This document shows positions 21,668 to 35,310 of a stretch of DNA of 64,000 nucleotides, piece by piece. Each line of letters starts with the position of its first letter. Position 1 is the first letter of the stretch. The notes under the pieces were generated by a model. The model saw only the letters and a list, made by a program, of their open reading frames with translations. It made no database searches and was not told the DNA's origin. The DNA is taken from assembly GCA_028714675.1 (NCBI GenBank), contig JAQTLV010000001.1, positions 165,507-229,506 of the forward strand, written 5' to 3'. This stretch comes from Sulfurovaceae bacterium (lineage in GTDB: Bacteria; Campylobacterota; Campylobacteria; Campylobacterales; Sulfurovaceae). Position numbers and translations under genes: made by a program.

Positions 21668-22312
21668 GTGAAAAAAATAATATTAATGATATTTATGGGA
21701 TTTTCTTTTTTGAATTCTGCTACTATTGATGATGGTATGGCTTACTATAATAAAGGTAACTATAACAAAGCATTTGAAACATTTTATATTTTGGCAAAAG
21801 ACAACAATGATACAAAAGCTCAATATAACACAGCTTTAATGTTTTTAAAAGGACAAGGTGTCAATAAAAGCAGAAAAGATGCATTGTATTGGTATACAAA
21901 AGCAGCAAATCAAAACCATGCTCCTTCGCAATATACACTTGGATATTTGTATCAAAAAGATGCAAAAGCAAGCCCTATTCTTATAAAGCAAGCTAAGTAT
22001 TGGTATGAAAGAGCTATGAAAAATAATTTTAGAGAAGCATACACAAATATGGCGTTTTTATATTACAATGGATATGGCAAAATGATTCCAAAAAATACAC
22101 GCAAAGCTATAATACTTTTTAGCAAAGCAGCAGCTATGGGAGATAGTAATGCACAATTAAATCTAGGAATAATTTATGGCTGGAGTGACGAAGTTTTGAA
22201 AAACAAACTAAAGTCGTATGATTATCTCAAACAAGCTTTACAAAACGGAAGAGGAGAGGCTGGAGGGTATCTTGATATTCTTTGCAAAGAAAGTAGCTGG
22301 ATCTGCCGTTAG
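21668..22312 (+). CDS. secreted Sel1-repeat (TPR-like) protein
   Basis: I chose the GTG at 21668, behind AAAAGGG; a longer reading from 21635 would overlap dapF and spoil the signal peptide. The 214-residue product has a signal peptide (MKKIILMIFMGFSFLNSA). At least four Sel1 repeats follow, such as AQYNTALMFLKGQGVNKSRK, QYTLGYLYQKDAKAS and AYTNMAFLYYNGYG. Two C-terminal cysteines (CKESSWIC) may form a disulfide, as in Helicobacter Hcp proteins. It is probably periplasmic and of scaffold type. Confidence 0.8.
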   Translation: MKKIILMIFMGFSFLNSATIDDGMAYYNKGNYNKAFETFYILAKDNNDTKAQYNTALMFLKGQGVNKSRKDALYWYTKAANQNHAPSQYTLGYLYQKDAKASPILIKQAKYWYERAMKNNFREAYTNMAFLYYNGYGKMIPKNTRKAIILFSKAAAMGDSNAQLNLGIIYGWSDEVLKNKLKSYDYLKQALQNGRGEAGGYLDILCKESSWICR

Positions 22313-23439
22313 GCAGAAACTGTATGCTTAGCTTTGTTTTTTATCCAAACCAACACAGGCATTATTTTTACAGTTGTAAATCCTACGATAAAGCCAAATA
22401 TAATTTCAACTAAAAGTACCAATAAAAAACTAATGCTGTTTAGGCGATGTTCTATGAAGCTTTCTATTCCATGAAGTATGCCTGTTTGATGAGCTATAAT
22501 CCCGCCTCCAACTGCCAACATAGCAATTGTTCCTATAACTGATATTGATTTGATAAGTGGTGGAACTATGGCTACCAATAAGTCCCCAGCTTTTTTTATA
22601 ATTGTATTTGTTTTTGATTGCAAAAAGAATCCTATGTCGTCAAGTTTGATAATAATTGCAACAACTCCATATACACCGATTGTTGTTATTATGGCTACTG
22701 CGAAAAGAGTTACTATTTTTACAATAAACTCAGCATTTCCAAGTAAAGATAGAGCTAAGATCATAATTTCTAATGAAAGTATGAAATCAGTTTTAATGGC
22801 ACTCTTTATCTTTTGTTCCTCAAATTTTTCTGTATTTAATTCTTTGATAGTTTCATCTGCACTATGTTCTTCGTTGTGGCCAAAGAATTTTTCTAAAACA
22901 CTTTCCACGCCTTCATAGGCGAGGTATAATCCACCCATAATCAAAATAGGCTTCATTAGAATTGGTAGATAAAGGTTTATCAATATTATTAGAGGAACTA
23001 TAATGAGCTTATTTAAAAAACTTCCTTTGGCTATTTTGGCAACTATTGGAAGTTCTCTAGCCGCTGCTTTTTGTTTGGCTTGTGTTGATATTTGGTTTCT
23101 TAACCTTTCAAGCTCTGCAGCTATAAGTTTTTTATTTTTTTTATCCAAGTGTGCTATGTTAGATTTTAGTTCTTCCATAGAGTTGGCTTTTTGTATCTCT
23201 TGCGTTAAAATACTAGAAGTTGTTTCGTTTGCAAGATTGGCTATAGCTGCCAAGTCATCTACAACGACACCAGACGATTTGGCACTTGCTATTTTAGTAT
23301 AAGTTGCTATATCGTCCAACATCACTGATGTATTATCGAGCGAACCTGCTACACTTTTTGTTGCTCCAGCCATTGTTTTGCCAGCAAGTGAGCTAATATC
23401 ATCAGCTAGTGCTGCTAAGTATCCTAAAATTCCTGCCAT
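22309..23439 (-). CDS. DUF808 family inner-membrane protein
   Basis: The 376-residue protein has the DUF808 (YedI-like) N-terminus, with ALADDISSLAG, TSVMLDDIATYTKIASAKSS and GVVVDDLAAIAN, then a charged insert and AAARELPIVAKIAKGSF. Several transmembrane helices follow, and the C-terminus ends IMPVLVWIKNKAKHTVSA. The family function is unknown; members are conserved multi-pass membrane proteins. The stop overlaps the convergent Sel1 gene end by four bases, and the start is divergent from the biosynthetic operon at 23576. Confidence 0.85.
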   Translation of the reverse strand: MAGILGYLAALADDISSLAGKTMAGATKSVAGSLDNTSVMLDDIATYTKIASAKSSGVVVDDLAAIANLANETTSSILTQEIQKANSMEELKSNIAHLDKKNKKLIAAELERLRNQISTQAKQKAAARELPIVAKIAKGSFLNKLIIVPLIILINLYLPILMKPILIMGGLYLAYEGVESVLEKFFGHNEEHSADETIKELNTEKFEEQKIKSAIKTDFILSLEIMILALSLLGNAEFIVKIVTLFAVAIITTIGVYGVVAIIIKLDDIGFFLQSKTNTIIKKAGDLLVAIVPPLIKSISVIGTIAMLAVGGGIIAHQTGILHGIESFIEHRLNSISFLLVLLVEIIFGFIVGFTTVKIMPVLVWIKNKAKHTVSA

Positions 23440-23561: not shown

Positions 23562-23575
23562 AAAAAGGAGAAAAC

Positions 23576-24397
23576 ATGGGACTAAATATACAAAAAACAA
23601 TGATTGCGACTATGGGGGAAGTTTTGGATATGTTACCAGAGGGGGACATAAAAAAAACTATTAAACAATCAGTACAAAACAAAGCTGATAAATTTTCATC
23701 TTTAGAAAAAGCATTTGAAAAAATGTGTAGTAAAAAATACTCAGATGAAACTATGAATCTTTTTCTTAATGGATGGAAAGCAACACATTTGAAAATGTTA
23801 CCAATATATGGACTTTCTTGTAGATTGAATCAGCTTGGAATGGCAAGTGAAGATAAAGAGCAAAAGCTAGCTTTTCTAGAATCATCTGCTTATAATGCAA
23901 AAACTAGCCATGAGGATTTGGGCATGGGTTTTGATGCTATCTCTCATGGACAACTTTATGATGAATTTGCTTTTTCAATGGTAAAAAGTGATGAATGGAA
24001 ACTCTCTAAATATGATACAAAAGAGGCAAATGATTTTTCTAGTTGGGTGTATAGAAGTATGCTACTTGAGTCTATACCATATGCACTTTGTATCAATATG
24101 TTTTCAGAATTCTATAATCATGCAGAATATGCCTACTCTTTTCTGACTTTTAAATACAGTATGGATAATTTTTATGGCATAAAAGGGCAAGAGTTAGAAG
24201 ATGCAATCAGATATATAGATGTGCATAATCAATATGAAACAGAGATTCATCACTTTATGGCAGTAATTAATGCGATAGAAAAATATGAAAAAGCATCGAA
24301 AGAAAAAGTATCAACTGAAATTATGAATCAAGTTATTTCAATATATATAGATAAAGTATGTGAGGCAATAGAGACAATAGCAAAAAAGTTTGACTAA
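23576..24397 (+). CDS. putative haem-oxygenase-like diiron protein (HDO type), first gene of biosynthetic operon
   Basis: The 273-residue all-helical soluble protein has no family I can name with certainty. Residues 107-131 (NAKTSHEDLGMGFDAISHGQ and on) resemble the N-x-DELG-x-GD-x-HS-x-L signature of haem-oxygenase-like iron oxidases. Potential ligands there are Glu113 and His124. A second cluster, DVHNQYETEIHH (215-226), resembles the H-x3-D-x2-H signature, shifted by one residue. HDO enzymes perform N-oxygenations or C-C and C-N cleavages of amino or fatty acids. Strong AAGGAG site. The next gene starts at the base after its stop, so it heads a tight operon. A non-metal helical role remains possible. 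Confidence 0.5.
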   Translation: MGLNIQKTMIATMGEVLDMLPEGDIKKTIKQSVQNKADKFSSLEKAFEKMCSKKYSDETMNLFLNGWKATHLKMLPIYGLSCRLNQLGMASEDKEQKLAFLESSAYNAKTSHEDLGMGFDAISHGQLYDEFAFSMVKSDEWKLSKYDTKEANDFSSWVYRSMLLESIPYALCINMFSEFYNHAEYAYSFLTFKYSMDNFYGIKGQELEDAIRYIDVHNQYETEIHHFMAVINAIEKYEKASKEKVSTEIMNQVISIYIDKVCEAIETIAKKFD

Positions 24398-25297
24398 TTG
24401 ATGATTGACTTTAAGCCGACCTTTTTAAAAGAAGCTACAGATACCAATGAGATGATGTGTTATCTTAATGAGTACGAAGTGTTATTAAAGAGTAATGCTA
24501 AAAAGCTTCAATCTCAGGGAGTAAAGATTCGAGATCAAGTTTTTGAGTGTTGCGCTTTTTCTATGGTTTCAAATAATCCAAAAGATAAGCACATTCTTCT
24601 TTTGGGTGGAATGGGACCATTAGCAGGAGTTCATGGAGCAAAAGATGTAATCAATATGATAGGGAATAGCGCCTCTATCACACTCTTTCAAGCTTGTGGA
24701 ATTCCTGAGCGAAGAATTGATGCAGAGGTGCCTAAATATCTTCTATCTGCGCTCAATAGCGCTATTAAGATATGTCCAAAAAACAAGAAGATAGAGTTTG
24801 TTATTTTGTGTAATAGTGCTCATAAATATATACAAGATATTATTTCTCATAGTAATTTTCAAGATAAACTCAATTTTTATTCTTTTATTGATGGAGTGAA
24901 AAAATATTCTGATATATTTAAAGATGAAAAAAGTATCGTTTTGCAGACTGATTTTACTGCTAAAAATAGACTCTATAATGGAGTAAAAAATCTCTTTTGT
25001 CTTGATGATATTTTTGCTTCAGCAACACAAAAAAAATATTTATCATCAATAATTGATGGTGTTAAAACTTTTGATAAAGATAAAATTCTAAAAAATAGTA
25101 CACCTTTGTTTAAAGCACTTAAAGATTATGGAATAAAAAAAGTATTGCTCGGCTGCACAGAACTTCCAGTTGCAATAGAGTGCATTAAAACATATGCAGA
25201 TGAAGAAACAAAGAACCTTCTTGATGCATTTGAATTTGTCAATCCTTTGCATTTAAGTATCCGTGAGCTACAAAAAAATCAAGAGAAAATGAAATGA
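24398..25297 (+). CDS. aspartate/glutamate racemase family protein
   Basis: The 299 residues carry the Asp/Glu racemase hallmarks: GGMGPLAG at 70-77, the first catalytic Cys at about 138 in ILCNSAHKY, and the second at about 253 in LLGCTELP. Both cysteines needed for two-base racemisation are kept, so activity is plausible. An unusual extension of about 60 residues precedes the domain. The family includes aspartate racemases, glutamate racemases and broad-substrate enzymes. No clear MurI feature suggests the housekeeping glutamate racemase. In this operon it probably supplies a D-amino acid building block. Start overlaps next-gene context: it abuts the upstream stop and overlaps the downstream start by four bases. 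Confidence 0.8.
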   Translation: MMIDFKPTFLKEATDTNEMMCYLNEYEVLLKSNAKKLQSQGVKIRDQVFECCAFSMVSNNPKDKHILLLGGMGPLAGVHGAKDVINMIGNSASITLFQACGIPERRIDAEVPKYLLSALNSAIKICPKNKKIEFVILCNSAHKYIQDIISHSNFQDKLNFYSFIDGVKKYSDIFKDEKSIVLQTDFTAKNRLYNGVKNLFCLDDIFASATQKKYLSSIIDGVKTFDKDKILKNSTPLFKALKDYGIKKVLLGCTELPVAIECIKTYADEETKNLLDAFEFVNPLHLSIRELQKNQEKMK

Positions 25298-26799
25298 ATA
25301 CAATAGTGTCTTATCTCAAAAAAAGAGTTCAAAGCACACCAAATAAGATATTTTTAAGAGATGAAGAAAGAATATGGAGTTTTCAAGATTTTTATGATGA
25401 TGCAGCAAGATTTTCAACTTTTTTACTCAATCATGGGATACAAAATGGAGATTTTGTCATAATTCATTTAGATAAAAAAATAGAACATCTCATAACATAT
25501 GTCGCTTTACTAAATATCGGTGCGATTAGTGTACATACATATCCAGAGCGCGAAGATGAATATATAGAGTTTGCCATCAAGCACACCAAAGCAAAAGCAG
25601 TAATTAGCAATAAATTTGCGGGCAATTGTGCAAAAGCAAAATTATTTGAATTTGTGTCTGATGATACACTTGAGCCTGCATATAAAGAAAATGCAAATGA
25701 TATAGCTTATATTATGTTTACAAGCGGAACAACATCTTTGTCAAAAGCAGTAGTTACAACACAAAAAAATGTTATTTTTGTTACTAAAACATTGATTGAA
25801 TTAGCACAAATGCGACAAGGACACGAAAGAGAGATTATATTGCTTCCACTTGGTTCAACAGGAGGGCTTGGGCATTTTCATGCATGCATGTTTTTAGGTA
25901 ATTATGCACGACTGTATCCTGGCTTCTACGCAAATTTAGATGAGCAAAGTATCACTGTTTTTTTAGACACTCTTGCACAAGAAAAGATAACAGGTGTTCT
26001 TTTAACTCCTGGAATTATAGGCAGGATACTTAAAACCCATAAAGATAAATTTAAAAATTCAGCAACAACCCTAAAGTATGCTTTGGCTAACGTTATGCCG
26101 ATGAAAAAAGAAACTATAAAAGAGCTTCTTGATCTTTTGCCCAATCTTCGGTTTTGTACATATTATGGCTCAACAGAAGCAAGCAGAAGTATCATCAATG
26201 TATGCAGAGAAAACATAGGCTTTGAGCATATAACAGGAAGACCTGTAAATGGAGTTGCAATAAGGATAGATAAACAAGGCGAGATATTTATACGAGGCGA
26301 TAATGTTATGAAAGGATATCTGTACGAAGAAGATAAATCATTACAAGATGGCTGGTTTGCAACAGGAGACATTGGATTTATTGACAATCAAGGTTATATT
26401 ACTGTGCTTGGTAGAGCAAAAGAAACTATTAGTTTAGACGGACTTAAAGTTTTTCCTCATGAGGTAGAAAGCATTATTAATACGCACAAATCAATTTATG
26501 ATGTGGGAGTTTCTTCTGTTGAAACAGAAATTGGGGCAGATGAGTTGTGCATGGCAATTGTTACTGATGATTTGGCGGATAAAGATGAGCTTAGTAAAGA
26601 GATAGTAAGTATGCTCAAAAAGCATTTTAAAATAGACAAAACCAATCTTTATAGTTATAAAATTCCTTCAAGAATATATTTTGTAAAATTAATTCCTAGA
26701 ACCGATTTAGGAAAGATAAAAAGAGGAGAACTTAGTAAAATACTATTAGTACAAAAAGATTTTATCTCAACAAAGGATAGACGTGATACAAGAGTATAA
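25294..26799 (+). CDS. AMP-binding (ANL superfamily) adenylating enzyme
   Basis: The full-length 501-residue adenylate-forming enzyme has the P-loop MFTSGTTSLSKAV at about 141-153, YGSTEASRS at about 291-299, GWFATGDIGFID near 353-364, and the hinge region GRAKETISLDG. The C-terminal domain carries the catalytic Lys at about 474 (PRTDLGKIKRGEL). The pattern is closer to stand-alone amino-acid or aryl/acyl ligases than to fatty acyl-CoA synthetases. The P-loop has SLSKA where GxPKG is usual. No carrier protein gene is seen nearby, so the acceptor (CoA, an amine or a distant carrier) is unknown. Confidence 0.85.
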   Translation: MNTIVSYLKKRVQSTPNKIFLRDEERIWSFQDFYDDAARFSTFLLNHGIQNGDFVIIHLDKKIEHLITYVALLNIGAISVHTYPEREDEYIEFAIKHTKAKAVISNKFAGNCAKAKLFEFVSDDTLEPAYKENANDIAYIMFTSGTTSLSKAVVTTQKNVIFVTKTLIELAQMRQGHEREIILLPLGSTGGLGHFHACMFLGNYARLYPGFYANLDEQSITVFLDTLAQEKITGVLLTPGIIGRILKTHKDKFKNSATTLKYALANVMPMKKETIKELLDLLPNLRFCTYYGSTEASRSIINVCRENIGFEHITGRPVNGVAIRIDKQGEIFIRGDNVMKGYLYEEDKSLQDGWFATGDIGFIDNQGYITVLGRAKETISLDGLKVFPHEVESIINTHKSIYDVGVSSVETEIGADELCMAIVTDDLADKDELSKEIVSMLKKHFKIDKTNLYSYKIPSRIYFVKLIPRTDLGKIKRGELSKILLVQKDFISTKDRRDTRV

Positions 26800-27988
26800 A
26801 AAATACTATAGCAAAAATTACACACCACAGAGATATAGACAATATCAAAATGATTTTCAAAAAGAGGTAGGAAAGCTTTATGCACTTTCTACAGGTCCAT
26901 ATTTTTTAAAAAAAACAAATGCCGCAAAAATAAAAGAAGCCATTTTGCCATCAATTATGAATCTTTTAAATTCTAAAAAGTATCAAGAAAGCGTATACCA
27001 AAGAGGTTGGTTTTTGCCTAAAATAGAAGTTAAAAAATTTGATTTTTTTGGAAGTGCTGATTTTCATATAAATGGTGACGAGATACGATTGATAGAGTTA
27101 AATTTCTTTATGCCAGGGCATTTTGGATTGATAGAACTTTTCCCAAAACTTTTTTCAAAAAACTTTGATTTTGAACTTGAAATTTTTACTGATGGCTTTG
27201 AGAGAAAATTGACAGATTTTTTAAAAGAGAGATTTGATGGCGATAAAATAGCATTATGTGTTAATCATCTAGGTCGAAGTGAACACTATCTTGATCATTA
27301 TAGATATATAGAGAATTTTTTAAATAAAAATGGCCTGAATGCTAAAGTTGTATATGCAAAAGATGCAGATATTTCGGATAATAACAGACCGATGTGGGAT
27401 AATGAAGAATATGATGGAGTGTTCAATATAGTAATTCCAAGAAATTGGGAGCACAATAAAGATGAATTTTTAAATTACACAACACTTTTTGAAAAGATAC
27501 CAGAATACTTTTTCCCAAATCCTTGGTGCTGGACTATTGGCGATAAAAGATTTTTAAATATTCTTGCCAATTTAGACAATGTGGACTATGGATTGAGTAA
27601 AAATGATGAGGTTGCCCTAAAAAGCATAACGCTAAAATCTGCTATGGTCAATAATTTTACAAATGCACAAGAGCTATACTCTTTTTTCGGAAATTCTAAA
27701 AACTTTGTTCTCAAGCCAATAGATAATTATCATACCGAAGGAGTCTATATAAAGCCTTCTGTTGAAATCATTGAAAAAATTATAAAAGAAGAGGCAGATT
27801 TTTATATCGCACAAGAGTATTTTGAAGCGGAAAATATATACTATGAAGATGAAAATGGAAAGCAAATTGAACCATACAAAGGACAACTTCGAGTGGAATT
27901 TTTTGATGGCGAATTTTTAAATTTTAGAACATATGGCTTTAGTAATCCTTTTGGACTTAGCCCAATGATGCCAGTTGTGATAAAATGA
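26783..27988 (+). CDS. putative ATP-grasp-type peptide/amide ligase
   Basis: The 401-residue protein starts at a GTG placed behind AAAGGATAG, inside the end of the ANL gene (17-base overlap). Features suggest an ATP-grasp ligase of the glutathionylspermidine-synthase-like kind: IRLIELNFFMPG (102-112), PWCWTIGDKRFLNIL (247-261), FVLKPIDNYHTEGVYIKP (308-325, candidate ATP-binding Lys311), IAQEYFEAE (342-350) and GQLRVEFFDGEFLNFRTY (367-384). The fold would couple a carboxylate to an amine with ATP hydrolysis. Similarity to named families is weak to my eye. Confidence 0.55.
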   Translation: MIQEYKKYYSKNYTPQRYRQYQNDFQKEVGKLYALSTGPYFLKKTNAAKIKEAILPSIMNLLNSKKYQESVYQRGWFLPKIEVKKFDFFGSADFHINGDEIRLIELNFFMPGHFGLIELFPKLFSKNFDFELEIFTDGFERKLTDFLKERFDGDKIALCVNHLGRSEHYLDHYRYIENFLNKNGLNAKVVYAKDADISDNNRPMWDNEEYDGVFNIVIPRNWEHNKDEFLNYTTLFEKIPEYFFPNPWCWTIGDKRFLNILANLDNVDYGLSKNDEVALKSITLKSAMVNNFTNAQELYSFFGNSKNFVLKPIDNYHTEGVYIKPSVEIIEKIIKEEADFYIAQEYFEAENIYYEDENGKQIEPYKGQLRVEFFDGEFLNFRTYGFSNPFGLSPMMPVVIK

Positions 27989-29286
27989 AAATAACAAATA
28001 GAGCTTTTTTTATTGTTGTAGTTTCCGCCATAGGATATTTGCTAAATCTTATTTTGAATCGTTACCTAACACACAATATTACCCCAGCTGCTTATGGAGA
28101 TTTTTGTATAGGATTAAATGCTTTAGAAATTGCATCAACCTTTTTGCTTTTAGGTACAGAAATAAGTGCCATGAGGTTTATTCCTCTACTTGAAAAAGAC
28201 AATAATTCATTGAGCTTTATAAAGTGGAATTTTTATTTCATAAAAAAACTTTTCTATATTTTTGTTATATTGTTATTTGTATTTTTTTTAGGCTTGATAC
28301 TGCTTGATAAAACAAAAGATATTCATACATCTTTTTTGATGCTTGGTGTTACACCAATCGCAGCAATTTATGCATTGATAATTGTATATTTAAATAGTCA
28401 AAACCATATTTTTATATCAACACTTATAGATTCCGTGTTGCGATATATTTTGCTTATCGCTACATTTTTCTTGTTGTTTAATCTCGCATCAGTAAAAGAA
28501 AATAGTATGGCACTATCTATGGCTTATGTTGGAGTATTTTTTATATTAGCATTATTTACAGCCTCTTTGTATAATAGAAAAAATAAAACACACTTACCTT
28601 TTAGTATATTTTTTTCAAAGGAAAAACCATTTTTTGATAAACACAAAGAGTGGGAAAGCGTCTCTATAAAATATTTGTTTTCAAATTTGATTTTTTTGTT
28701 TTTTATGTATATTGACAAAATGGTTTTGGATATTGTTCATGAAAATGAAGATATTGTAGGGCACTATTCTGCTGTTGTTGTTTTGGTTGGACTTTTTAGT
28801 TTGATTTCTCAATCTTCAGGAATATTTTTATCTCCAAAGATAAGTAAATTTATCAAAGATAAGAATGGTATAGGTATATTACAAGGGATGATTTATAAAG
28901 CAAATAAAAATATGTTTATACTTTTTGTTGTACTTTTGACAACCTATATCTTTTTTGGCAAAAATATACTTGGATATTTTGGTAAAAATGGCGAATATAC
29001 CATTATTTATTATGGATTGATATCTCTTTCTTTTTCTCAGATTTTATTAGAGATAGGAAATCTTTCTATGAGATTTCTTCTTTATGGAGGTTATGCAGAC
29101 TATATCAATAAAATACTTTCCGTGTCACTAGCGGCTTTATTGATTTTTGGAATTATATTGACATATTATGTTGGGATATATGGCATCATCATAGCTCATA
29201 TCCTAACAAGCTTTTTTTATATGATTGCTTTTGCAATTAAGGCAAAAAAAGAGTTTGGGCAACTCAAAATACTAAGTTTATACTAA
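27985..29286 (+). CDS. polysaccharide-biosynthesis-type flippase (MATE/MOP superfamily)
   Basis: The 433-residue inner membrane protein has about twelve transmembrane helices. It shows the Wzx-like N-terminus with LNLILNRYLTHNITPAAYGDF and a later LGTEISAMRFIPLLEKD. Such proteins flip lipid-linked oligosaccharides or similar molecules across the membrane. It overlaps the ATP-grasp gene by four bases (ATGA), so it is the last gene of the operon and the likely exporter of its product. No glycosyltransferase genes are nearby. Confidence 0.8.
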   Translation: MKITNRAFFIVVVSAIGYLLNLILNRYLTHNITPAAYGDFCIGLNALEIASTFLLLGTEISAMRFIPLLEKDNNSLSFIKWNFYFIKKLFYIFVILLFVFFLGLILLDKTKDIHTSFLMLGVTPIAAIYALIIVYLNSQNHIFISTLIDSVLRYILLIATFFLLFNLASVKENSMALSMAYVGVFFILALFTASLYNRKNKTHLPFSIFFSKEKPFFDKHKEWESVSIKYLFSNLIFLFFMYIDKMVLDIVHENEDIVGHYSAVVVLVGLFSLISQSSGIFLSPKISKFIKDKNGIGILQGMIYKANKNMFILFVVLLTTYIFFGKNILGYFGKNGEYTIIYYGLISLSFSQILLEIGNLSMRFLLYGGYADYINKILSVSLAALLIFGIILTYYVGIYGIIIAHILTSFFYMIAFAIKAKKEFGQLKILSLY

Positions 29287-29292
29287 AAGCGA

Positions 29293-30087
29293 TTATTTAA
29301 ATATTTTTTTAGACTGTTTAAAAGCTTTTTTAATTAGTTTTTTTTGTATATCGCCAATATATTTTTTAAGCAAAGTGTATTCTTTTTCACTTTGATATTT
29401 TTGCGTATATTGTTCAAACAAATCTATATCATGAATTTTGCCCAAAGTAGAAGTTAATTTATTTAGTTGTTTCATTATTTTTTGTGAACAATGAATATTT
29501 CCTTCTAAAGCTTGAAGTTGATACATGTAATATTTGGCATACTTTCGGAAATGATGTATATCTTCTATTTTGTTTGTTTTTATGGCAACATTTAGTAACC
29601 TAGATGTTTTTTTATATGTTTCTTTGAGTCTTTTATTGATATCTTTTTTGGATACATGAACATGCTTGTAAGCACATAAATTTCCAAATGCTCTTAGTAT
29701 AGATTCTTGTGTCTCATCAATATGGGCAGTTTCTTTATTCAATAGACTAATCTCATCATCAATATGTTTTTTGATATTTGGAAAATCATCATATTGTAAT
29801 CCACTTTTTTTGATTATGAAGTTAAAAGTTTTACTTAGAACTTGTGCTTCTCTTTTTTGTTCCAAATTTTTAGATATTTGTTTATAAAATTCTTTTTGGC
29901 TTTGTATAAATTCTTTATTTTTGAAAAATGGTTTTATAAAATATAAAATAGATCTAATATTTTTAGATACTACCCTAATACCATGTATTTTTTTATTTGA
30001 ATTTGAACATGAACCTTCAATCAGGTAATATGCGTTTATTAAGGTTGTTGATAAATAATCAAATGGATTAAATACATCCGATTTCAT
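29293..30087 (-). CDS. CHAD domain protein
   Basis: The 264-residue protein is helical and basic. It has the two half-repeats of the CHAD fold: KIHGIRVVSKNIRSILYFI near the N-terminus, and IHHFRKYAKYYMYQLQALE followed by LTSTLGKIHDIDLFEQY in the second half. The conserved His, Arg and Lys line a polyphosphate-binding channel in studied members. Binding polyphosphate granules is likely. No CYTH domain or ppk gene lies nearby. Its end is convergent with the flippase gene at six bases. Confidence 0.85.
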   Translation of the reverse strand: MKSDVFNPFDYLSTTLINAYYLIEGSCSNSNKKIHGIRVVSKNIRSILYFIKPFFKNKEFIQSQKEFYKQISKNLEQKREAQVLSKTFNFIIKKSGLQYDDFPNIKKHIDDEISLLNKETAHIDETQESILRAFGNLCAYKHVHVSKKDINKRLKETYKKTSRLLNVAIKTNKIEDIHHFRKYAKYYMYQLQALEGNIHCSQKIMKQLNKLTSTLGKIHDIDLFEQYTQKYQSEKEYTLLKKYIGDIQKKLIKKAFKQSKKIFK

Positions 30088-31800: not shown

Positions 31801-32178
31801 TTATGGTGCGAGGATAAGTGCTGGAGCTACGGTTTTATCATCTTTTGTTTTTGCATACCCAGCATTAAAGATAGGGGTTCCATTGAGAAAATCCCACTCT
31901 AGTGTAGCAGCACCATTTTTTACCAAGTAACCACCACCTAAACTAACACCAAATTTATTTGTTAGAGGATAATATGTTACCCCACCACTAACTACTCCAC
32001 TATCTTCTTTGTTTGTTGATAAAGCTTTTAATGATATACCCACACCACCGCCAAAGCTATATGTTACACCCAAAAATGCCGTAGGGTGACTCTTGGTATT
32101 TTGAACTGGCGCAATACCAGCATTTACATAGGTACTGCCTATAAATAAAATACCCATTGCTATTAAAAGCTTTTTCAT
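31801..32178 (-). CDS. small secreted protein, third (diverged) member of a tandem family
   Basis: The 125-residue protein has a signal peptide (MKKLLIAMGILFIGSTYVNA). Its Gly-rich beta-type mature part holds FLGVTYSFGGGVGISLKALS, KEDSGVVSGGVTYYPLTNK, FGVSLGGGYLVKNGAATLEW and FNAGYAKTKDD. It has the same layout as the two genes before it but is clearly diverged, with a longer N-terminus and tail. The alternating Gly/aromatic pattern suggests a small beta-structure in the envelope. I recognise no function. It is downstream in the same minus-strand run, 22 bases from its neighbour. Confidence 0.75.
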   Translation of the reverse strand: MKKLLIAMGILFIGSTYVNAGIAPVQNTKSHPTAFLGVTYSFGGGVGISLKALSTNKEDSGVVSGGVTYYPLTNKFGVSLGGGYLVKNGAATLEWDFLNGTPIFNAGYAKTKDDKTVAPALILAP

Positions 32179-32200
32179 ATCTATATGCCCTTTTTATAAT

Positions 32201-32533
32201 TTATTTAATATTCACTGGTGCATCATCTTTCGTATGAGCATAACCAGCACTAAATGTAGGAAGACCATTTAGAAAATCCCACTCAACAGTAGTGGCACCA
32301 TTTTTTACTAAGTACCCACCACCTATACTAGCACCAAACTTATTTGTTAGAGGATAATATGTAACACCACCACTCAATACACCACTATCTTCTTTATCTG
32401 TAGATAGAGCTTTGAGTGATAATCCAACACCACCGCCAAAACCATAGGTTACACCTGCAAATACTGAAGGCGAAGCACTTGCATATGTACTACTTATGAG
32501 TAAGATACTCGCTACTGCTAAAAGTTTTTTCAT
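32201..32533 (-). CDS. small secreted protein, second tandem copy
   Basis: The 110-residue protein has signal peptide MKKLLAVASILLISSTYASA and the same Gly-rich body as the neighbours. Over about 315 bases it differs from the next copy (32567-32902) at only about three bases. It ends differently (DDAPVNIK). The near identity points to a very recent tandem duplication or gene conversion. The 33-base gap before it has no room for a separate promoter, so it is probably transcribed from the promoter before the first copy. Confidence 0.75.
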   Translation of the reverse strand: MKKLLAVASILLISSTYASASPSVFAGVTYGFGGGVGLSLKALSTDKEDSGVLSGGVTYYPLTNKFGASIGGGYLVKNGATTVEWDFLNGLPTFSAGYAHTKDDAPVNIK

Positions 32534-32566
32534 AGTGATACTCCTTTAATAATATATTTCAGATCT

Positions 32567-32902
32567 TTAGTCTGGCATAGGCGCTGGCACATCATCTTTC
32601 GTATGAGCATAACCAGCACTAAATGTAGGAAGACCATTTAGAAAATCCCACTCAACAGTAGTGGCACCATTTTTTACTAAGTACCCACCGCCTATACTAG
32701 CACCAAACTTATTTGTTAGAGGATAATATGTAACACCACCACTCAATACACCACTATCTTCTTTATCTGTAGATAGAGCTTTGAGTGATAATCCAACACC
32801 ACCGCCAAAACCATAGGTTACACCTGCAAATACTGAAGGTGAAGCACTTACATATGTACTACTTATGAGTAAGATACTCGCTACTGCTAAAAGTTTTTTC
32901 AT
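32567..32902 (-). CDS. small secreted protein, first tandem copy
   Basis: The 111-residue protein has signal peptide MKKLLAVASILLISSTYVSA and the body VFAGVTYGFGGGVGLSLKAL, KEDSGVLSGGVTYYPLTNKF and ASIGGGYLVKNGATTVEWDF. It ends DDVPAPMPD. It is the promoter-proximal member of the family, behind a good AGGAG site and a promoter-like sequence that is repeated before the YegP gene. Function unknown. Confidence 0.75.
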   Translation of the reverse strand: MKKLLAVASILLISSTYVSASPSVFAGVTYGFGGGVGLSLKALSTDKEDSGVLSGGVTYYPLTNKFGASIGGGYLVKNGATTVEWDFLNGLPTFSAGYAHTKDDVPAPMPD

Positions 32903-33587: not shown

Positions 33588-33857
33588 ATGCGTAAAATTT
33601 TTATATTCATGGCACTAATTATATCCATTGCATTTTCTGTATCAGATGACAGCTCAATAATTAATAAATTGGATTTACAAAATAGTAAAATACTTGAAAA
33701 GCAACAAAAGTGCAATACACTAATTGCAAAAAATACTACTCTAGAAGAGATACAAAGACGAGGATGTTGTTCTCATCATAGTGGAGTATGTGATTGTGTG
33801 AATGGGCGTGCTAAATGTTGCGATGGAACATTAAGTCCAACATGTGGATGCGATTGA
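33588..33857 (+). CDS. small secreted Cys-rich protein
   Basis: The 89 residues comprise a signal peptide (about 1-19), a short helical segment with one Cys (42), and a compact C-terminal module with eight cysteines at 60, 61, 68, 70, 77, 78, 86 and 88. The module reads GCCSHHSGVCDC, then GRAKCCDGTLSPTCGCD. The HHSGVC and CDGTLSPTC segments recall a small disulfide or zinc module seen at the ends of other bacterial secreted proteins. Strong AAAGGAGC site. Function unknown. Confidence 0.75.
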   Translation: MRKIFIFMALIISIAFSVSDDSSIINKLDLQNSKILEKQQKCNTLIAKNTTLEEIQRRGCCSHHSGVCDCVNGRAKCCDGTLSPTCGCD

Positions 33858-34170: not shown

Positions 34171-34213
34171 GAATATTTATTTTTTAAAAAATAGCTACAT
34201 GCTAAGGGATACC

Positions 34214-35155
34214 ATGAACCCAAAAGTTTTTATCAGTCATGCAAGTGAAGACAAAGAAAGGTTTGTAATAGGTTTTGCCAGTAAATTACGAGCAAATGGA
34301 GTCGATGCTTGGCTTGATAAATGGGAAATGCTCCCAGGCGATAGTTTAGTTGAGAAGATTTTTGAAGAAGGTATAAAAGAAGCTGATGCTTTCATCATCG
34401 TGCTTTCCAATCACAGCGTAAATAAACCATGGGTACGAGAAGAATTAAATGCCAGCTTTGTTAAAAGAATAGGCAAGAACAGTAAAATTATTCCAATCGT
34501 TCTTGATAATTGTATAGTTCCAGAATGCCTACAATCAACTATTTGGGAAAATATAAATAATCATCAAAACTATGAAGAAAGCTTTACGAGAATCCTAAAC
34601 TCTATACTTGGATTATTTGACAAACCTGCATTGGGCCATACCCCATCTTATGCCACAAGTAAAATTAATGAGCTTCAGGGCTTACTCAAGATTGACACAC
34701 TCATTTTTACTCAAGCATGCCAAACAGTTTTATCTAAAGATCACAAAAGCGTTAATTTATCTGAGATTTATGATGACTTGAAGGCACTAGGAATTTCAGA
34801 TGAAGATATTTTGGACTCGTTAGAAATACTTGATTCAAAAGGTTATATTAAAGCCACAAAAGCAATTTCGGGTATGATACCTTTTTTTACAATTAGTACT
34901 TTTGGATTTAACGAATTTGCACAAGCAAATATTGAAAATTACGAAGAAATTATCAATGATGTATGTATTAAATTAATCAATCATTCGTTAAATAATAATG
35001 TTGATGTTGCAGATATGACCAAGTATCCACTGGCATTAGTAAACCATATTTTTGACCTTTTGGAGAATAAAGGTTTGATAAAAACAGCTAAACGAATTGA
35101 GGGATTATATCATATCGTAAATATCTCACCTGAACTGAAGCGTATGTTTAAATGA
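34214..35155 (+). CDS. TIR-domain protein with C-terminal helical region
   Basis: Start at the ATG 34214 behind AGGGAT. The 313 residues have a TIR domain at about 1-140: KVFISHASEDKERFV, VDAWLDKWEMLPGDSL, AFIIVLSNHSVNKPWVREEL and IIPIVLDNC. Glu38 in DKWEML is at the position of the catalytic Glu of NAD-cleaving TIRs such as SARM1, so NADase activity is plausible. The rest (about 160-313) has two similar winged-helix-like blocks that end GYIKATKAISGMIPFFTIST and GLIKTAKRIEGLYHIVNISP. A sensing or DNA-binding role is an inference. Standalone TIR proteins often act in phage defence. No known Thoeris or CBASS partner is present. Confidence 0.85.
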   Translation: MNPKVFISHASEDKERFVIGFASKLRANGVDAWLDKWEMLPGDSLVEKIFEEGIKEADAFIIVLSNHSVNKPWVREELNASFVKRIGKNSKIIPIVLDNCIVPECLQSTIWENINNHQNYEESFTRILNSILGLFDKPALGHTPSYATSKINELQGLLKIDTLIFTQACQTVLSKDHKSVNLSEIYDDLKALGISDEDILDSLEILDSKGYIKATKAISGMIPFFTISTFGFNEFAQANIENYEEIINDVCIKLINHSLNNNVDVADMTKYPLALVNHIFDLLENKGLIKTAKRIEGLYHIVNISPELKRMFK

Positions 35156-35224: not shown

Positions 35225-35310
35225 TGGCGGACAGAGGGGGATTCGAACCCCCGGTACTCTCGTACGGCCGCGTTCCAGGCGACTAGATTAAACCACTCTC
35301 CCATCTGTCC
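35225..35310 (-). tRNA. tRNA-Ser (GGA)
   Basis: On the minus strand the acceptor GGACAGA pairs with TCTGTCC. The anticodon stem GTCGC/GCGGC flanks CTGGAAC (anticodon GGA). A long variable arm, discriminator G and encoded CCA are present. It borders the accessory islet. Confidence 0.97.

What the first reader, a model, noticed from the sequence alone, without database searches (positions are those of the whole stretch)
23576..29286. Compact five-gene operon that looks like an undescribed amino-acid-derived natural product pathway
Seen: five plus-strand genes abut or overlap by 0-17 bases, so they are one transcription unit. The products are a possible HDO-type metalloenzyme, an Asp/Glu racemase family protein with both catalytic Cys, a full-length ANL adenylating enzyme, an ATP-grasp-like ligase and a Wzx-like flippase. 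Known: racemase plus adenylation plus ATP-grasp is typical of D-amino-acid-containing peptides or amides, and HDO enzymes modify amino acids by N-oxygenation or bond cleavage. Inference: the operon makes and exports a small modified D-amino acid or peptide-like molecule, perhaps a surface or lipid-linked one. No carrier protein, NRPS, PKS, siderophore synthetase or glycosyltransferase is present, so it matches no standard cluster type I know.
Basis: partly seen in the sequence, partly recalled or inferred. Interest (0 to 1): 0.85.

Follow-up and report, generated by a model that had tools for sequence, protein, structure and literature searches.

The report
Conserved mobile small-molecule operon, product unknown
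Five packed genes in a Campylobacterota bacterium form a real, horizontally exchanged enzyme set that probably oxidises an amino acid and stitches it into a small peptide-like compound without the usual giant assembly-line enzymes; a related set occurs in a cyanobacterium, but the product is unknown.

Summary
In detail: five plus-strand genes abut or overlap over 23576-29286. The four enzyme genes are a unit: in about 400 sampled genomes each, gene 1 (5 of 397) and gene 4 (5 of 399) occur in exactly the same five genomes, always in the order 1-2-3-4. Gene 5 is a flippase in three of them and a GT9 glycosyltransferase in two. Between this genome and G009, genes 1-4 were exchanged recently (dS 0.31-0.53 against 1.58 for dapF and 1.72 for the flippase), under purifying selection. 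A Nostoc plasmid carries gene 1, a remnant of gene 2 fused to an adenylation-carrier protein, and a GT9 50% identical to the one replacing gene 5. Gene 4 folds like glutathione-synthetase-type ATP-grasp ligases. Gene 1 as an HDO rests on motif register and a weak profile match, with a non-canonical third helix; its fold model failed. Best reading: a carrier-free pseudopeptide pathway with the logic of dapdiamide, E-64 and mangotoxin, in a new enzyme combination. Substrate, D-configuration and product are not shown.

The parts
23565..23570 (+). ribosome-binding site of gene 1 (AAGGAG)
   Evidence: read directly from the sequence
23576..24397 (+). gene 1: putative heme-oxygenase-like diiron oxidase (HDO-like), 273 aa; invariant H112-E113-D114-L-G, H124, E178, H182, E184, H217, E223, H226
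   Evidence: homologues in G009, G304, G223, G402, Nostoc, Azospirillum
24398..25297 (+). gene 2: Asp/Glu-racemase-family protein, 299 aa from TTG (298 from the ATG at 24401), C138 and C253 conserved, about 60 extra residues at the N-terminus
25294..26799 (+). gene 3: ANL-superfamily adenylating enzyme, 501 aa; P-loop FTSGTTS..K, A10 lysine K474, no Asp at the position of GrsA Asp235 (Thr189)
26783..27988 (+). gene 4: ATP-grasp carboxylate-amine ligase of the eukaryote-type glutathione synthetase / YjfC-YgiC fold group, 401 aa
   Evidence: distant relative on a Methylophaga plasmid
27985..29286 (+). gene 5: MOP-superfamily (Wzx-like) membrane protein, 433 aa; exchangeable position, GT9 in G304/G223

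Best explanation
The operon encodes a carrier-free pathway to a small modified pseudopeptide. Proposed order (inferred): gene 2 sets or inverts a stereocentre of an amino acid or amino-acid-derived acid; gene 1, an O2-using dimetal HDO-like oxidase, oxidises that building block so that it no longer presents an ordinary alpha-amino group; gene 3 adenylates the carboxylate and passes it to an amine; gene 4 forms a second amide from a carboxylate and an amine via an acyl phosphate. The product is then moved out by the gene-5 transporter, or glycosylated by the GT9 that takes its place or sits elsewhere in some relatives. Shown: the gene set, its conservation and lateral movement, the fold match of gene 4, the families of genes 2, 3 and 5. 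Inferred: all reactions, their order, substrate and product.
For: Same gene order 1-2-3-4 in five genomes of three families; genes 1 and 4 occur in the same five genomes and in no other of about 400 sampled for each. dN/dS 0.05-0.16 for genes 1-4 between window and G009. Gene 4 model matches 2HGS, YjfC, YgiC, trypanothione synthetase and the E-64 amide ligase Cp1B (best E 1e-7). Gene 3 keeps the ATP-binding and A10 residues. Gene 1 aligns with PF14518-type HDOs in register at E113, H124, E184 and H217; score 32.5, reached by 1 of 200 block shuffles and 0 of 200 column shuffles. Neither gene 3 nor the Nostoc partner A domain has Asp235. In Nostoc, gene 1 stands directly before an adenylation-carrier protein and an NRPS. 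GT9: in 3 of 397 genomes, all three with the operon, once about 0.5 Mb away from it. Precedents for the logic: E-64 (PMC12568646), mangotoxin (PMC13185094).
Against: Gene 1 model has pLDDT 59 and no fold hit; its third-helix motif is H-x5-E-x2-H, not HxxxDxxH. The gene 4 model is also low (pLDDT 56), though its fold match is specific. Gene 3 cannot be told from a CoA ligase by sequence. No self-resistance, regulator or redox partner gene is present. In Nostoc the racemase is reduced to about 80 residues without either Cys, so it is not needed there. The window genome has no homologue of the GT9.
Confidence: 0.6

Rival explanations
1. Surface decoration: genes 1-4 make an unusual amino-acid-derived acyl or amide substituent that is attached to a lipid-linked or LPS/capsule glycan; the flippase moves the lipid-linked unit and the GT9 adds a (heptose-like) sugar. 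It works as a sugar-tailoring island rather than a free secreted metabolite pathway.
For: Both alternative fifth genes are surface-glycan families: PF01943 in G000 and G009, with a homologue of that protein in G402, and PF01075 in G304 (with its 86% identical counterpart in G223); the Nostoc cluster also has a GT4 and a second GT9.
Against: No sugar-nucleotide, initiating transferase or polymerase gene was seen next to any copy. In Nostoc the pathway appears to feed an NRPS.
Confidence: 0.25
2. Metallophore pathway: the product binds a metal or oxyanion and is re-imported.
For: In G009 a TonB-dependent receptor and a TupA-like solute-binding protein lie directly upstream on the same strand. 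HDOs are known in chalkophore pathways (PMC13108848).
Against: These genes are not beside the operon in the other four genomes; a 60% identical homologue of the receptor occurs in a genome without gene 1 (G007) and a 56% one is unlinked in G402. About 100 bases separate them from gene 1.
Confidence: 0.08
3. Gene 1 is not an oxygenase of the HDO kind but another helical protein (ferritin-like metalloenzyme, or a TenA/PqqC-like protein without a metal site); the rest of the pathway stands.
For: No family or fold hit; non-canonical third-helix spacing; ExxxH and ExxH motifs that also occur in ferritin-like oxygenases.
Against: EDLG-x7-H-x2-LY and the following ligands fall in register with PF14518 proteins, better than nearly all shuffles.
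Confidence: 0.25

Closest known systems
E-64 pathway of fungi (cp1A-D; PMC12568646)
   Same: oxygenase plus stand-alone ATP-grasp ligase plus ANL amide bond synthetase, no NRPS; Cp1B is among the fold matches of gene 4
   Different: Fe/2-oxoglutarate oxygenase and PLP decarboxylase instead of HDO-like protein and racemase; no flippase or GT9 among its four genes
Mangotoxin operon mboABCDEF (PMC13185094) and the HDO + ATP-grasp clusters surveyed there
   Same: HDO with ATP-grasp ligase(s), short peptide product, no NRPS
   Different: mbo has two ATP-grasp ligases, a redox partner and an arginine deiminase; the main text mentions no racemase, adenylating enzyme or flippase. I could not see the survey's list of 25 cluster types, so this family may be in it
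Dapdiamide pathway (DdaG ANL + DdaF ATP-grasp; cited in PMC12568646)
   Same: pairing of an ANL amide synthetase with an ATP-grasp ligase
   Different: dapdiamide uses a carrier-bound intermediate and a 2-oxoglutarate oxygenase; no HDO or racemase of this family known to me
Nostoc sp. UHCC 0926 plasmid pn1 NRPS cluster (L009 11890-23954)
   Same: homologous gene 1 (34%), N-terminal remnant of gene 2, adenylation enzyme without Asp235, GT9 50% identical to that of G304
   Different: adenylation domain fused to a carrier domain, C-A-T-C NRPS downstream, extra glycosyltransferases; no ATP-grasp or flippase seen in the stretch read; I found no paper describing its product

Membership tests
HDO superfamily (heme-oxygenase-like dimetal oxidases) | seven-helix heme-oxygenase fold | tested here: inconclusive
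   model pLDDT 59, no fold hit with E<=0.001
HDO superfamily (heme-oxygenase-like dimetal oxidases) | first-helix Glu and His, second-helix Glu | tested here: met
   E113, H124, E178 and E184 invariant in seven homologues; E113, H124, E184 in register with PF14518-type proteins
HDO superfamily (heme-oxygenase-like dimetal oxidases) | third-helix HxxxDxxH | tested here: not met
   H217-x5-E223-x2-H226 (H-x4-E-x2-H in Azospirillum) instead; ligand types fit, spacing does not
HDO superfamily (heme-oxygenase-like dimetal oxidases) | significant match to a family profile | tested here: inconclusive
   no Pfam/NCBIfam hit; hhalign against three PF14518-type proteins 23% probability, p 9e-4, above 199 of 200 block shuffles
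Cofactor-independent Asp/Glu racemase family | two catalytic Cys in CNSxH and GCTE contexts | tested here: met
   LCNSAH C138 and GCTE C253 invariant in five sequences
Cofactor-independent Asp/Glu racemase family | profile score over curated cut-off | tested here: not met
   PF01177 24.7 bits against 31; CuyB 52 against 190; a divergent subfamily
ANL adenylating enzymes | AMP-binding domains, P-loop and A10 Lys | tested here: met
   PF00501 and PF13193 over cut-off; FTSGTTS, GSTE, K474
NRPS-type amino-acid A domain | Asp at GrsA position 235 | tested here: not met
   Thr189 (Ala in the Nostoc partner)
ATP-grasp ligase, glutathione-synthetase/YjfC fold group | fold | tested here: met
   Foldseek 19 hits with E<=0.001, all ligases of this kind, best 1e-7, from a low-confidence model
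ATP-grasp ligase, glutathione-synthetase/YjfC fold group | ligase activity | not testable with these tools
   needs purified protein
MOP-superfamily polysaccharide transporter (Wzx-like) | family profile | tested here: met
   PF01943 39.5 bits against 28.2; substrate unknown

The most novel reading that the evidence does not exclude
An undescribed class of natural product, shared across Campylobacterota and Cyanobacteria, whose reactive part is made by a new HDO subfamily with a rearranged third-helix metal site acting with a cofactor-independent racemase, and which is assembled either carrier-free (ANL + ATP-grasp) or on an NRPS, and glycosylated by a dedicated GT9.
Probability: 0.35. Interest if true: 0.75.

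Novelty: new variant of a known kind. Interest (0 to 1): 0.55.

Why it matters
To my knowledge few natural products are known from Campylobacterota. A compact four-enzyme set that moves between families and connects to a cyanobacterial NRPS cluster gives a tractable route (four soluble proteins) to possibly new oxidative chemistry and a new metabolite, and offers a natural comparison of carrier-free and carrier-bound assembly of a related building block.

Tried and rejected
Viral contigs and phage records gave nothing. One whole-collection scan with gene 4 found only the G009 contig. AF2 of gene 1 failed and its Foldseek list is noise, so the AetD hit at rank 35 (E 2.0) was not used. Profile search of gene 1 against PDB sequences: nothing. 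The metallophore idea from the TonB/TupA genes in G009 was tested and largely rejected. The FeeM-like acyltransferase upstream in G304/G223 is divergent and was not seen beside the other copies; not counted. The ATP-grasp relative beside copper genes in Methylophaga (22% identity) has none of the other genes beside it and was not used. Defence system: no PADLOC hit for genes 1-5. No Rfam element in the region. Promoter-like sites do not exceed chance.

Full report
Observation. Five plus-strand ORFs lie at 23576-24397, 24398-25297, 25294-26799, 26783-27988 and 27985-29286, with a gap of 0 and overlaps of 4, 17 and 4 bases. Gene 1 has a good ribosome site (AAGGAG at 23565-23570); gene 2 more likely starts at the ATG at 24401, in line with its homologue in G009. 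The neighbours on both sides run on the other strand (DUF808 22309-23439, CHAD 29293-30087), so the operon stands alone. GC (0.27-0.33) is close to that of the window.

Families. Gene 3 is a full ANL enzyme with P-loop and A10 lysine, and Thr189 where NRPS A domains have Asp235; lack of this Asp is read in the literature as a sign of a substrate without a free alpha-amino group (PMC11356792). Gene 2 belongs to the Asp/Glu racemase family as a divergent member: GGMGP signature, CNSAH and GCTE cysteines invariant in five sequences, scores below curated cut-offs. Gene 5 is a Polysacc_synt (MOP) protein. Gene 4 has no significant sequence hit, but its model, though of low confidence (pLDDT 56), matches eukaryote-type glutathione synthetases, YjfC/YgiC, trypanothione synthetase and the E-64 ligase Cp1B with E down to 1e-7: an ATP-grasp carboxylate-amine ligase.

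Gene 1. No family or PDB hit; the AF2 model from five sequences failed (pLDDT 59) and gave no fold match. Seven homologues keep HEDLG, a His eight residues on followed by xxLY (two residues nearer in Azospirillum), SE-YNH-EY and VH...TE..HF. PF14518-type proteins taken from the phylum and from plasmids show E[EL]xG-x7-H-x2-LY-like, GGE-like and H..D..H motifs; hhalign puts the two groups in register over residues 101-240 with score 32.5 (23% probability), reached by 1 of 200 block shuffles and none of 200 column shuffles. The third-helix spacing departs from HxxxDxxH. I take HDO-like as likely, not shown.

Conservation. Gene 1 was found in 5 of 397 genomes sampled from the phylum and gene 4 in 5 of 399 sampled from the order; they are the same five genomes: the window genome, G009 (same genus), G304 and G223 (another family), G402 (a third family). 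All hold genes 1-2-3-4 in order. Gene 5 is the flippase in G000, G009 and G402 but a GT9 glycosyltransferase in G304 and G223. G402 has a GT9 80% identical to that of G304, about 0.5 Mb from its operon; this GT9 was found in 3 of 397 genomes, all with the operon. These counts ignore kinship, so they are indications, not probabilities.

Lateral movement. The operon lies between different neighbours in G000, G009, G402 and the G304/G223 pair. Between G000 and G009, genes 1-4 differ by dS 0.31-0.53, the flippase by 1.72 and dapF by 1.58. So genes 1-4 were exchanged recently without the fifth gene, or the fifth was replaced afterwards. dN/dS of 0.05-0.16 shows selection to keep the enzymes. G007 and G005, closer to the window genome in dapF (70 and 69% against 63% for G009), lack gene 1.

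Cross-phylum link. On a Nostoc sp. UHCC 0926 plasmid a gene 1 homologue (34%, E 1e-51) overlaps a gene whose first ~80 residues match the N-terminus of gene 2 (hhalign 96%) and which continues directly into an adenylation and a carrier domain, without the racemase part that bears the two cysteines; a C-A-T-C NRPS, a GT4, a GT9 50% identical over 303 residues to that of G304, and a second GT9 follow. The A domain next to gene 1 also lacks Asp235. By my own reading of the pocket the second A domain looks Thr-type; this was not tested. An Azospirillum plasmid has a gene 1 homologue beside an MFS transporter, without genes 2-4 in the 25 kb read.

Mechanism. Oxidation of an amino-acid building block by gene 1, stereochemical adjustment by gene 2, adenylation and amide formation by gene 3, second amide by gene 4, and export or glycosylation, is the simplest reading. 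It follows the logic of E-64 (oxygenase, ATP-grasp, ANL amide synthetase; PMC12568646), dapdiamide (cited there) and mangotoxin (HDO + ATP-grasp; PMC13185094). None of the steps has been shown here; gene 3 could make a CoA ester, and the order of the steps is open. Whether a D-amino acid is formed is unknown, and the loss of the racemase core in Nostoc suggests that it is not always needed.

Verdict. A real, conserved, laterally moving biosynthetic operon; a new combination within a known kind of carrier-free pathway.

Noticed in passing
L013 14866-17744 (G009): TonB-dependent receptor followed by a TupA-like (tungstate) solute-binding protein directly upstream of the operon in G009 only; looks like a separate oxyanion uptake module.
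   Followed up: partly
window 34199-35155, with tRNA-Ser at 35225-35310: TIR/SEFIR-type protein (best PADLOC match bSEFIR, 8.7e-28) next to a tRNA-Ser gene, a candidate single-gene defence element.
   Followed up: no
window 31801-32902, - strand: Three tandem, very similar small secreted proteins (110-125 aa), a recent local duplication.
   Followed up: no
window 33588-33857: Small secreted Cys-rich protein ending in CCSHHSGVCDCVNGRAKCCDGTLSPTCGCD.
   Followed up: no
L011 4634-5413 and L012 13286-14077: FeeM-type N-acyl amino acid synthase gene (PF21926, matched in L011) divergent from the operon in G304, with a similar ORF at the same place in G223; link to the pathway untested.
   Followed up: no
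L005 11791-13068 (Methylophaga plasmid): Distant relative of gene 4 (22% identity) inside a copper resistance gene region.
   Followed up: no
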